64,000 nucleotides of DNA from Circinella umbellata (Eukaryota > Mucoromycota > Mucoromycetes > Mucorales > Lichtheimiaceae), in NCBI GenBank assembly GCA_025093555.1, contig JAIWNF010000033.1, positions 310,001 to 374,000 on the forward strand, given 5' to 3'. The notes beneath the pieces are model-generated. The model worked only from the letters and a program-made list of their open reading frames with translations, was not told where the DNA came from and did no database searches. The translations under genes were made by a program, and so were the position numbers. Of the stretch, positions 27,913 through 37,715 are shown one piece after another. Every line of letters begins with the position of its first letter. The stretch's first letter is position 1.

Positions 27913-28955
27913 TTAATCATCTCGATCAGCTACTACTACATCCTCTGGAGTGGGGGATTCAAGACGTGGAGTGAGCTCTTTTTCTTCTTCTTCTTCTCGC
28001 TCTTCTGTCTTGTTTTGTTGATCTTCGTCGTCGTCTTGCTGAGATTTCTCTTCTGCTTCTACTGCTAATTCATTTTCTGATTCTTCTTCCTTCATACGTT
28101 CTTCTTTACGAGATTCGTATACCTTACGTTCCTCCCTTGCAGATTCCATCTGGTCTTCGATTTGTTTTTCAAGCTCTTTTGTAAGTTTCTTTGGACGATA
28201 ACATAATCGAGGTTCTGTTTTGGTTTTAATATAGTTCGCTAAATATTCTTTTTGTTTTACACATGTGGCATCCTATATAAACATATATGTACGGGTTAAG
28301 AAAAAGAATTCATCCAGATCATATCGTCCGTTCAACATATATATTATACACGTACACGCTTCTCTTCTATCATTCGCTCTTCTCTTTTTTTCAATAACGT
28401 TGTTTCTCGATCTCGACGTTGTTTATCAGCATGCAATTTTTCTGATAATTCTTTTTTCTCATTAGCAAGCTTTTCATGTAACTTCGAATCAATTTCTGCC
28501 CTTTTTCTCTCCTAGGAAACATATAATATATATTTTTATAAATTACATTGTCGACTTTATCAATATATACATATATATTATTACTTACTGCGTCCGACTT
28601 CTGTTTACTATCATCTTTGAATTTATTCAAGGTCCCTAATAATACTCCAAACATACGTTGGCCACGCCCTCTACTGTCTGCATTCAATTCCAAACGTGGT
28701 TTCTTGCTCTATTTTATTTATATCAATTCCATCGGTTCAGATCAAGAGTAATAAACCATTCCTTTTTTTTTTTGGTTTACGTTGTATCTTTTTTAATACA
28801 AAATAGTGTCATACCTCTTGGGATCCGCTTGTTCCTGTTTCAGCTGTGGGCTCATTGAGAGCACTACCGTTATTATTATCTTCTTGATCTACCGATCGTT
28901 TTCGTGATGACGAATTTGCAGTTTGTGACGGTACGACAATACTAGATTTAACCAT
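27913..28955 (-). CDS. pinin homolog (pinin/SDK/memA domain)
   Basis: Nuclear protein of the pinin family, which in animals associates with the exon junction complex and splicing factors. Four exons on the minus strand (28955-28815, 28708-28589, 28511-28356, 28272-27913) encode 258 residues. The N-terminus is Ser/Asn-rich with a basic SSSRKRS stretch. The diagnostic core SRGRGQRMFGVLLGTLNKFK at residues ~57-76 matches the pinin/SDK/memA signature (R-R-M-F-G-x-L-x-G-T-L-x-K-F). A long charged coiled coil follows (ERKRAEIDSKLHEKL…, EERMIEEKR). A conserved-looking YIKTKTEPRLCYRPKKLT precedes an acidic, Glu-rich tail. It is much shorter than vertebrate pinin, which has a long Ser-rich C-terminus. 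It is divergent from the PIG-B gene with 231 bases between starts. Confidence 0.88.
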
Positions 28956-29186: not shown

Positions 29187-31278
29187 ATGACAACAGATCA
29201 GCAAAAAATACGAAGGCGCAATCCACCTAATTTTAGTAAACAAGATAATGACAATACCCAAAATATTCCAGAACTAACGAAACCTGCACCAGCCGTCATC
29301 GCCGCAGGCGATCAACAATCGACCAAAGGTTCACGTATTTTTGTATTTTCACTTTGTTTGATTTTTCGACTTGTCAACGCCTATTTTACACGTACATATG
29401 ATAATCCGGATGAATACTGGCAATCACAAGAGGTCGCACACAGCATGGTCTTTGGATATCCTTTTCTTTTAAAAAAAAAGTCCATTTTAGTATCAATATT
29501 AGCTAGAGAAAGAGAAAAAGAGAGTGATAATGATGATAAAGTCCTTAACCAACATACTGCACATATGGGTATTTAACTTGGGAGTGGACTTCTAAAATTC
29601 GTAGTTATGCTCATCCGATTATGTTTGCCATAATATATAAGTTACTTGCTTGGTTGCAGCTAGATGAGACACGTCTATTGGTAAGTTACAACAACATATT
29701 TACCATAGAAACAAAAGTAAACATGCTAACTGATAAGTAGATTCTAGCCCCAAAATTATTCCAAGCAAGTATGGCGGCAGTGACAGATTATGCAACATAT
29801 TTATTAGGAAAGCGTGTTATGGGAAATACCATTGCACCCTATCTGGTATGTTTACGGTTTGTTTACAGGATAAAATAGCATTTAGAGGCATATAATTTAT
29901 TTGGAAAATTACCAATTGACATTATTTTATATACGATATAGTTATTTATTACTTTATGTTCGTGGTATAATTTTTTTATAGCCGCACGCACTTTGTCTAA
30001 CACTGTTGAAACAATGTTTACTGTCATTGCCTTGAACTATTGGCCATCCAATGTAACAAATTTTTCCGATAATAGCTGGATAAAGTAAGATTATTTCTAT
30101 AAAATTAAGGATATTGGGAGGTATACTGGTGTAACTTTCTTTTTAATATACCACATACTAGAAATTATCGTATTTCACTCTTATGGGCATCTCTTGCATG
30201 CGTTATGCGCCCAACAAATGCATTAATATGGATCTTTTCCGGTCTACAACTTGCGGCTCGATTTTCAGGTCGTCGGATTGCTGTTTTGTTAAATGCTGCA
30301 ATTATTGTGTAAGTAAAAATACTTTGAGTTACCAAAGAGTAATTTAAATATAAGGGGGATAGTCTAATGTGGAAAATTAAAAAAAAATCCTTGTATAGGG
30401 CAATCATTCTCACAGCCAATATCGCTCTGGACACTTTTATTTATTCTAAAGAACTTAATGTGGAAAAGCTAGTTCTAACGCCCATCAACTTTTTCAAAAT
30501 CAATGTCTTACAATCGATATCACTGATTTATGGTGTTCACCCTTGGCATTGGTACATTTCACAGGGTGTGCCAGTTATTTTGACAACCATGCTTCCCTTT
30601 GCACTTTACGGATATCGCTGTACCCCAGACAAAGCAAAAGACGCACGATCCTTAGGTCACCTTATTATATGGGTACTAGGTGCATATAGTCTCTTGTCAC
30701 ATAAAGAGTTTCGATTCATTTTTCCCGTTGTTCCTCTCATGTTAATATTTGTTGCTAATGGTCTATCTAATATTCCTACCCGGTGGCGCAAACTATCTGC
30801 TATTGCATTAATGGTAACACAAGTACCTATGGCACTCTACCTGTCACTTTGGCATCAACGGGGCGTAACCGATGTCATGTTGTGGATACGAGAACAAGCC
30901 AATAATTCTTCTGTACACTCCGTTGGTGTATTGATGCCATGTCATTCAACTCCTTGGCAATCAGTTGTTCATCGATCGGATGTCGATATGTGGTTTCTTA
31001 CTTGTGAACCACCTTTACATAGTAATGAAGAAGAATATATCGATGAAGCGGATCGCTTTTATGCTAGTCCAGCTTTGTTTCTAGAAAAAGAGATTGGACA
31101 ACCTGAACGTCCATGGCCTACACATCTTGTCCTATTTGAAAACTTGTTGGAAATGGATAATGCAAAGATAAAAGAGATGCTTACAAAGAGTGGGTATCGT
31201 GAATGCGCTCGTTTCTTTAATAGTCATTTCCATGATGATTGGAGACGCCGTGGTGATGTTCTTGTATATTGTCGATAG
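29187..31278 (+). CDS. GPI mannosyltransferase III (PIG-B/Gpi10, GT22)
   Basis: ER membrane enzyme that adds the third mannose to the GPI anchor precursor from dolichol-phosphate mannose. Six exons (29187-29455, 29563-29680, 29741-29845, 29942-30084, 30162-30308, 30399-31278) give 553 residues, the normal family length. Motifs in order: RLVNAYFTRTYDNPDEYWQS with the luminal Asp-Glu acidic pair typical of GT22 enzymes, then VFGYGYLTWEW, YAHPIMFAIIYK, MRPTNALIW, FFKINVLQSISLIYGVHPWHWY and SHKEFRFIFPVVP. The last is the HKE motif of this glycosyltransferase group. Many hydrophobic segments span the membrane. The first intron has AT-AC ends with U12-type signals; without removing it the conserved FGYGYLTWEW block is broken. 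It converges on the LRR gene, with 237 bases between stops. Confidence 0.95.
29456..29562 (+). other. U12-type AT-AC intron in the PIG-B gene
   Basis: The 107-base intron starts ATATCCTTTT, the exact minor-spliceosome donor consensus. It ends TGCAC and carries a perfect U12 branch site TCCTTAAC at 29542-29549, with the branch A about 14 bases before the 3' end, inside the usual 10-20 base window. Removing it joins GG|A and yields MVFGYGYLTWEW, the conserved block of PIG-B/Gpi10. No GT-AG pair I can find restores that block. Confidence 0.92.
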
Positions 31279-33329: not shown

Positions 33330-33690
33330 TAAGCATTAATTATAGTAAAAAATAATAATTATAAAATTAAAAAAAAATTATATCTTTTCATAGACTGACT
33401 TCCTCTAAATCAACTATACATTATTTAAACGTGCTGATTTTTCTCTATTTACTAGAAATGTATGATCAAACGTGTAATTAAAAGAAATTTTAAAAAATAA
33501 TAAAAACAAAAATTAAAATACAATGCTTTGTGCTGATTTTTGTTCTTAATTTCTTGTTTAACAAGAAGCCTTCTTGGCTCAGTTGGCAGAGCGTCCGCCT
33601 AGTAAGCGGAAGGTCGGCGGTTCGATTCCGCCAGAAGGCATGATCAAACGTTTAATTTGTTTACCTGTAGTTATCTACAGATGAAATTTT
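33330..33690 (+). repeat. left arm of tRNA-Thr inverted repeat
   Basis: About 360 bases that recur, reversed and nearly identical, at about 37345-37715. Matching runs include TCATAGACTGACTTCCTCTA, TTTAAACGTGCTGATTTTTC, CAATGCTTTGTGCTGAT and the whole tRNA gene. Most differences are single substitutions; similarity fades inward after GTTTACCTGTAGTTATCTAC and outward near 33330. Boundaries are by eye. Confidence 0.9.
33568..33640 (+). tRNA. tRNA-Thr (anticodon AGU)
   Basis: A 73-base cloverleaf. Acceptor stem GCCTTCT pairs with AGAAGGC, with discriminator A. Internal promoter A box is TGGCTCAGTTGG and B box is GGTTCGATTCC. The anticodon stem TCCGC/GCGGA encloses the loop CTAGTAA, so the anticodon is AGU, which decodes Thr (A34 normally becomes inosine). 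There is no intron. CCA is not encoded. An identical copy lies at 37415-37487 on the other strand. Confidence 0.97.
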
Positions 33691-37344: not shown

Positions 37345-37715
37345 TATCAAAAAACAAAAAACAAAAAGTTTCACCTGTAGATGACTACATATAAACAAAT
37401 TAAACGTTTGATCATGCCTTCTGGCGGAATCGAACCGCCGACCTTCCGCTTACTAGGCGGACGCTCTGCCAACTGAGCCAAGAAGGCTTCTTGTTAAACA
37501 AAAAATCAAGAACAAACATCAGCACAAAGCATTGTATTTTAATTTTTGTTTTTATTATTTTTTAAAATTTCTTTTAATTACACATTTGATCATACATTTC
37601 TAGTAAATAGAGAAAAATCAGCACGTTTAAATAATGTATAGTTGATTTAGAGGAAGTCAGTCTATGAAAAGATATAATTTTTTTTAATTTTATAATTATT
37701 ATTGCTGTAATTAAT
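37345..37715 (-). repeat. right arm of tRNA-Thr inverted repeat
   Basis: Reverse complement of the left arm at about 33330-33690, covering both flanks and the tRNA. It differs by a few substitutions (for example ATGTGTAATTA against ACGTGTAATTA). The intact tRNA shows the duplication is recent or held by conversion. Confidence 0.9.
37415..37487 (-). tRNA. tRNA-Thr (anticodon AGU), second copy
   Basis: Identical in sequence to the copy at 33568-33640 but on the minus strand, so the two genes point toward each other across the AT-rich core. Same acceptor stem, A and B boxes, AGU anticodon and A discriminator. Confidence 0.97.

What the first reader, a model, noticed from the sequence alone, without database searches (positions are those of the whole stretch)
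29456..29562. U12-type AT-AC intron in a fungal PIG-B/Gpi10 gene
The intron begins with the exact minor-spliceosome donor ATATCCTTTT and has a perfect TCCTTAAC branch site with the branch A 14 bases before an AC 3' end. Removing it restores the conserved FGYGYLTWEW block. Most studied fungi have lost the minor spliceosome, so this implies that U11, U12, U4atac and U6atac function in this organism.
Basis: partly seen in the sequence, partly recalled or inferred. Interest (0 to 1): 0.93.

Follow-up and report, generated by a model that had tools for sequence, protein, structure and literature searches.

The report
Ancient minor-spliceosome intron in fungal PIG-B
A gene for making protein membrane anchors in a mould, very probably Circinella, is interrupted by a rare kind of intron that needs the cell's second splicing machine, at a place where other fungi and vertebrates seem to have one too; the kind is known, but gene annotation often misses it.

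Summary
Window 29456-29562 is a 107-nt AT-AC intron (ATATCCTTTT ... TCCTTAAC ... AC) splitting codon 90 of a 553-aa PIG-B/Gpi10 gene. Of 54 stop-free splice pairs scored (307 listed), this one fits PIG-B homologues best. The genome is very probably Circinella umbellata (Mucorales, Lichtheimiaceae). It holds U11 and U6atac genes. The strict donor-plus-branch pattern occurs 18 times against 3 for its reversed control; 14 lie outside a repeat, and 7 of those match a known family across the junction. U12 and U4atac were not found, so the inferred four-snRNA set is only half shown. The position looks old: 7 of 13 homologous models with extra residues there carry 'YP' (RTATCC read through) right after the split codon, in fungi and vertebrates. 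Minor introns and snRNAs in Mucoromycota are already published, so this is a new member of a known kind. Less expected: all 14 begin AT, branch-to-acceptor spacing reaches 34 nt, and U4atac is missing, as reported for Lichtheimia.

The parts
29187..29455 (+). PIG-B/Gpi10 exon 1 (ATG at 29187), ends in phase 2 with ...GTCTTTGG
29456..29562 (+). U12-type AT-AC intron, 107 nt, phase 2
29456..29465 (+). U12-type 5' splice site ATATCCTTTT
   Evidence: same 10 letters in all 14 non-repeat hits
29542..29549 (+). branch site TCCTTAAC
29561..29562 (+). AC 3' splice site
29563..29680 (+). PIG-B exon 2 (ATATGGGTATTTAACTTGG...)
29741..29845 (+). PIG-B exon 3, flanked by GT-AG introns
29942..30084 (+). PIG-B exon 4
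30162..30308 (+). PIG-B exon 5
30399..31278 (+). PIG-B exon 6 with stop codon

Best explanation
29456-29562 is a genuine U12-type (minor-spliceosome) AT-AC intron in the PIG-B/Gpi10 gene of a fungus that is very probably Circinella umbellata. By the established mechanism U11 pairs with the donor, U12 with the branch site, U6atac replaces U11, and an AC downstream of the branch site is used. Shown: sequence signals, best fit of the exon junction, presence of U11 and U6atac genes, and six other genes in which removing an AT-AC intron of the same kind gives a known protein family across the junction. Inferred: actual splicing, U12 and U4atac (not found), and that the intron dates at least to the common ancestor of fungi and animals (from apparently mis-annotated homologues, not from their DNA).
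For: Signals and frame; best of the stop-free pairs scored (54 of 307 listed), best GT-AG 33 bits lower. U11 gene 71.2 bits, whose 5' end holds AAAAGG, complementary to the donor's CCTTTT, and U6atac gene 53.9 bits with the GAAAGGAGAGA box intact (duplex energies). 18 pattern hits against 3 control; 7 of the 14 outside the repeat match a family above its cut-off across the junction: PIG-B, ALG6/8, NF-YB, DCP2, RNB/DIS3, FANCD2, Brr6. Positional conservation: 7 of 13 PIG-B models with extra residues between the EVAH-like and TWEW-like motifs carry YP exactly after the split codon, from Rhizophagus, a chytrid, rat, three birds and a frog. In NF-YB all 5 models with an insertion at its intron site, among 114 of 120 that could be compared, begin YPF.
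Against: No RNA data. U12 and U4atac snRNAs not found. YP fits RTATCC in phase 2 and so cannot tell AT-AC from GT-AG minor introns in the other species; 6 of the 13 longer PIG-B models lack it. The deposited C. umbellata PIG-B model starts downstream of the intron, so it neither supports nor contradicts splicing. Five of the 14 hits matched no family and two only below the cut-off.
Confidence: 0.94

Rival explanations
1. The AT-AC intron is removed by the major spliceosome (the known minority of U2-dependent AT-AC introns).
For: AT-AC ends alone do not define U12 type (PMC3584512, passages). U12 and U4atac were not found here. Several introns here have T-rich stretches and long spacing before the AC.
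Against: The donor ATATCCTTTT and the branch site TCCTTAAC are U12 hallmarks, and U11 and U6atac genes are present. A genome that had lost the machinery would not be expected to keep 14 sites of this kind against a control of 3.
Confidence: 0.04
2. The junction is really a nearby GT-AG intron or the segment is always retained.
For: Gene prediction chose another structure: the deposited C. umbellata model omits exons 1-3.
Against: The best stop-free GT-AG pair loses 33 bits. Retention shifts the frame with a stop at codon 130. The GYGYLTWEW block is well conserved in the homologues that cover it.
Confidence: 0.02

Closest known systems
U12-type introns of Mucoromycota (Rhizopus oryzae, Phycomyces blakesleeanus; PMC2846911, passages and section 11 seen)
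   Same: same donor rule RTATCCTT, U12-type branch sites required, same order Mucorales, minor snRNAs present
   Different: there GT-AG minor introns are common (by the Burge method Phycomyces 8 of 17, Rhizopus 2 of 3); here 0 of 18 strict hits begin GT, by different criteria
Minor introns of Rhizophagus irregularis (205) and Basidiobolus meristosporus (249) (PMC10639083, passages seen)
   Same: fungal minor introns; a Rhizophagus clarus PIG-B model appears to read into an intron at this very site
   Different: far more introns reported there; all four minor snRNAs reported for Rhizophagus
Minor snRNAs of Lichtheimia corymbifera (PMC4133162, passages seen)
   Same: same family; U11 and U6atac present, second half of U6atac divergent, U4atac not detected
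   Different: U12 was reported there (third stem atrophied); not found here

Membership tests
U12-type intron | 5' splice site RTATCCTT | tested here: met
   ATATCCTTTT at 29456
U12-type intron | branch site TTCCTTRAY (consensus recalled) close to the 3' end | tested here: met
   TCCTTAAC at 29542-29549, A to AC 14 nt; the base before it is G, not T
U12-type intron | AT-AC or GT-AG ends at a coding junction | tested here: met
   best of the stop-free pairs scored, 54 of 307 listed
U12-type intron | excised by the minor spliceosome in RNA | not testable with these tools
   no RNA data
minor spliceosome in this genome | U11 snRNA | tested here: met
   71.2 bits, gathering 39
minor spliceosome in this genome | U6atac snRNA | tested here: met
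   53.9 bits, gathering 33
minor spliceosome in this genome | U12 snRNA | tested here: inconclusive
   no match with RF00007, but only 42 of 4627 candidates scored; patterns gave 35 loci, 23 of them run against Rfam without a U12 match
minor spliceosome in this genome | U4atac snRNA | tested here: inconclusive
   no match with RF00618, 48 of 2042 candidates scored; complement searches against this U6atac found only the U6atac locus itself and two sites that are not U4-like
minor spliceosome in this genome | specific proteins (65K, 31K, 25K, 48K) | not tested
   the 12 genome searches went to snRNAs and introns
PIG-B/Gpi10 (GT22) | Glyco_transf_22 domain over most of the length | tested here: met
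   331 bits, residues 53-452; several homologues named GPI mannosyltransferase 3 or phosphatidylinositol glycan class B

The most novel reading that the evidence does not exclude
Lichtheimiaceae run a minor spliceosome without a recognisable U4atac: U6atac is delivered by a strongly altered partner or by another RNA. In step with this the system has narrowed to AT-AC introns with a shifted branch context (A before TCCTTAAC) and relaxed branch-to-acceptor spacing. In two genera computation now fails to show U4atac (Lichtheimia in print, this Circinella-like genome here).
Probability: 0.08. Interest if true: 0.8.

Novelty: new member of a known kind. Interest (0 to 1): 0.36.

Why it matters
It adds a clean, testable minor intron in a mould. 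The PIG-B site appears to hold a minor intron in Rhizophagus, a chytrid and vertebrates too, so it would predate the split of fungi and animals. Gene prediction seems to break on it: the deposited Circinella model lacks exons 1-3, and some rat, bird, frog and fungal models appear to translate the donor as 'YP'. That suggests a cheap protein-level signature for missed phase-2 minor introns. A minor spliceosome with no detectable U4atac in a second genus of the family makes an open question directly testable by small-RNA sequencing.

Tried and rejected
U12 snRNA: RF00007 and four patterns: CCTTAAA..GAGTAAGGAA (1 hit, control 0; by eye it lies antisense in a coding gene), GCCTT..GTAAGGAA (20 hits, control 12; sequences seen), AGTAAGGAA..ATTTTTG (11 hits, control 17; only the first 80 letters of each seen), CCTTA..GTAAGGAT (3 hits, control 15; sequences seen). 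I judged none U12-like by eye. Rfam was run on 23 of these 35 loci and gave no U12. Not run: L027, L029, L030, L031, L033, L037, L039, L042, L046, L047, L051, L052; L051 and L052 lie at the same places as L032 and L021, which were run.

U4atac: RF00618. The pattern was badly designed (it would miss human U4atac as I recall it) and found only the reverse strand of U6atac (1 hit, control 0). Better patterns: 0 hits, control 2; 3 hits, control 2: the U6atac locus itself plus L058 and L059, neither U4-like by eye or Rfam.

Considered and rejected: that the four-copy dispersed repeat (L004, L010, L011, L020) is a minor intron in a gene. It has no long open frame upstream of the site and has A at donor position +10. 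The four were dropped before counting introns.

The claim 'all minor introns here are AT-AC' is not proven: it rests on the strict branch motif only, because the looser GT search did not complete. For the six genes other than PIG-B only NF-YB was tested against alternative junctions; for the others the family match across the junction was not compared with other junctions. A second, wrong-frame peptide of L006 sent along gave only a sub-threshold match (FhuF_C, E 0.033). Minor-spliceosome proteins were not searched.

Paper searches in the held library: 'minor introns'+'fungi'+'minor spliceosome'+'Mucoromycota' (0 papers), 'U12-type'+'intron'+'PIGB', 'minor intron'+'PIGB', 'Circinella'+'spliceosome'; some searches gave the papers cited. 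PMC2426677 holds none of glycan, PIG, mannosyltransferase, GPI in its main text. Supplements and minor-intron databases were not seen and may well list PIGB.

Full report
WHAT IS THERE. With exons 29187-29455, 29563-29680, 29741-29845, 29942-30084, 30162-30308 and 30399-31278 the gene reads 553 codons and a stop. The other four introns are GT-AG. The product matches Pfam PF03901 over residues 53-452 with 331 bits. Its homologues (best 120 of 1387 listed) are Alg9-like mannosyltransferases, several of them named GPI mannosyltransferase 3 or phosphatidylinositol glycan class B.

SPECIES. The closest protein, from Circinella umbellata, is identical to residues 156-553 apart from one stretch of about a dozen residues at a splice junction, where the deposited model uses another boundary (391 of 401 identical). 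The window is therefore very probably C. umbellata itself. Against this, the NF-YB gene at L009 differs by a residue from the deposited C. umbellata NF-YB at the intron site (SEASDRC against SESSDRC), which I read as a second copy but did not test. Circinella and Lichtheimia both belong to Lichtheimiaceae, Mucorales. The deposited PIG-B model begins at residue 156 and lacks exons 1-3.

IS THE JUNCTION RIGHT. I listed 307 GT/GC/AT...AG/AC pairs around the intron; the 54 that gave a frame without stops were scored against a profile of 87 homologues. The AT-AC pair 29456-29562 came first (733.9 bits). The next was another AT-AC pair (725.1), and the best GT-AG pair scored 700.5. The same kind of test on the NF-YB gene at L009 (306 pairs listed) also put its AT-AC pair first (208.7 bits), closely followed by an AT-AG pair (207.0); the best GT-AG pair had 152.4.

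MACHINERY. Rfam U11 has one match in the genome (71.2 bits, cut-off 39; 39 of 5601 candidates scored) and U6atac one (53.9, cut-off 33; 46 of 2423 scored). Alignments show the U11 5' end AAAAAGGGC and the U6atac box GAAAGGAGAGA intact; U6atac has 35 nt where the model has 6 in its 3' half. U12 and U4atac gave no match, but those searches scored only 42 of 4627 and 48 of 2042 candidates. Four pattern searches for U12 and three for U4atac gave nothing convincing (hits and controls in Tried and rejected). In Lichtheimia corymbifera U4atac was likewise not detected, even in reads, U12 had an atrophied third stem, and the second half of U6atac was divergent (PMC4133162, passages). So the picture here resembles a published relative.

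OTHER INTRONS. RTATCCTT + 30-90 nt + TCCTTAAC occurs 18 times in 50.8 Mb, against 3 for the reversed pattern. All 18 begin ATATCCTT. Four (L004, L010, L011, L020) are copies of a dispersed repeat of about 600 bases and were set aside. Of the other 14, all continue TT at +9 and +10, and 12 of 14 have A before TCCTTAAC. Splicing to an AC lets seven of 14 match a family above its cut-off across the junction: PIG-B; ALG6/ALG8 (L005, 56.4 bits), NF-YB (L009, 87.7), DCP2 (L016, 107), RNB/DIS3 (L018, 54.2, supported); FANCD2 (L006, 79.7) and Brr6 (L019, 39.8, only 7 residues beyond the junction). L003 and L014 gave only sub-threshold matches (CDC24_OB2, IBN_N). L007, L008, L013, L015 and L017 gave none in Pfam; L017 and L015 also gave none against solved structures. 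Where offered several AC ends, the one submitted was chosen by eye.

TWO ODDITIES. First, no strict hit begins with GT, whereas Bartschat and Samuelsson list, by the Burge method, 8 GT-AG among 17 minor introns of Phycomyces and 2 of 3 in Rhizopus (PMC2846911 section 11). Criteria differ, and a looser GT search here did not complete. Second, the distance from the branch A to the AC in the seven supported introns is 14 (PIG-B), 14 (ALG6/8), 19 (Brr6), 22 (FANCD2), 22 (DCP2), 23 (NF-YB) and 34 (DIS3). [quoted passage not shown] Several of these stretches are rich in T.

AGE OF THE SITE. If a gene predictor reads into a phase-2 intron beginning RTATCC, the split codon is followed by Tyr-Pro. Among 201 PIG-B homologues listed by two searches (only the best 120 of each are listed) 163 cover the region, 38 do not, and 14 have an unusual length there. 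One of the 14 (P0321) is shorter; of the 13 others 7 have YP directly after the split codon: Rhizophagus clarus (P0051), Phlyctochytrium arcticum (P0062), rat (P0260), duck (P0295), Hydrobates tethys (P0297), hoopoe (P0298) and the frog Pyxicephalus (P0302). YP occurs at 277 of 104,666 positions in the set, so 7 of 13 is far beyond chance (binomial 1.5e-15), although the rows are related to each other and I looked after seeing the first cases. The Rhizophagus model ends its extra segment ...T|YGYL, which fits AC followed by an exon beginning NTAT. A Fennellomyces model (P0004), which does not cover the region in the count, contains AWFLDILFF, which fits another-frame reading of ...TTTTTGGATATCCTTTTT (my reading). 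Six rows (P0087, P0255, P0265, P0281, P0310, P0312) have no YP. In NF-YB, of 120 homologues listed (of 6473) 114 could be compared: 109 have no insertion at the Circinella intron site and 5 do, all 5 beginning YPF (Dichotomocladium twice, Apophysomyces, Gongronella, Fennellomyces); of the 6 not compared, three (P0227, P0230, P0234) are shortened there. YP cannot separate AT-AC from GT-AG minor introns.

VERDICT. Minor introns in early-diverging fungi have been in print since 2006 (as cited in PMC2846911 and PMC10639083; the 2006 paper itself was not seen), so the finding is a new member of a known kind. The extra value lies in the apparent deep conservation of the PIG-B site, the repeated mis-annotation, and the second failure to find U4atac in this family.

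Noticed in passing
window 28000-28955, minus strand: A pinin/SDK/memA gene (PF04696, 100.9 bits, from three exon pieces joined by eye) lies head to head with PIG-B, with about 230 bases between the two start codons, so the two probably share a promoter region.
   Followed up: partly
window 33568-33640 (+) and 37415-37487 (-): Two tRNA-Thr(AGT) genes with equal Rfam scores in opposite orientation about 3.8 kb apart.
   Followed up: no
L004, L010, L011, L020: A dispersed repeat of about 600 bases near whose end a 63-base block (ATATCCTTTATT...TCCTTAAC) looks, by eye, more alike among the copies than the rest and mimics a U12 donor and branch site (16 of the 63 bases were fixed by the search); similarity ends about 20 bases further on.
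   Followed up: partly
L009 and P0124: The genome's NF-YB at L009 reads SEASDRC while the deposited C. umbellata NF-YB reads SESSDRC, so there may be two NF-YB copies.
   Followed up: no
L002:1501-1653: U6atac has about 29 more bases than the Rfam model in its 3' half, and the stretch that (recalled) pairs with U4atac stem I differs from the consensus (UCUUUGGCAAU against AGGUUAGCAcU).
   Followed up: partly
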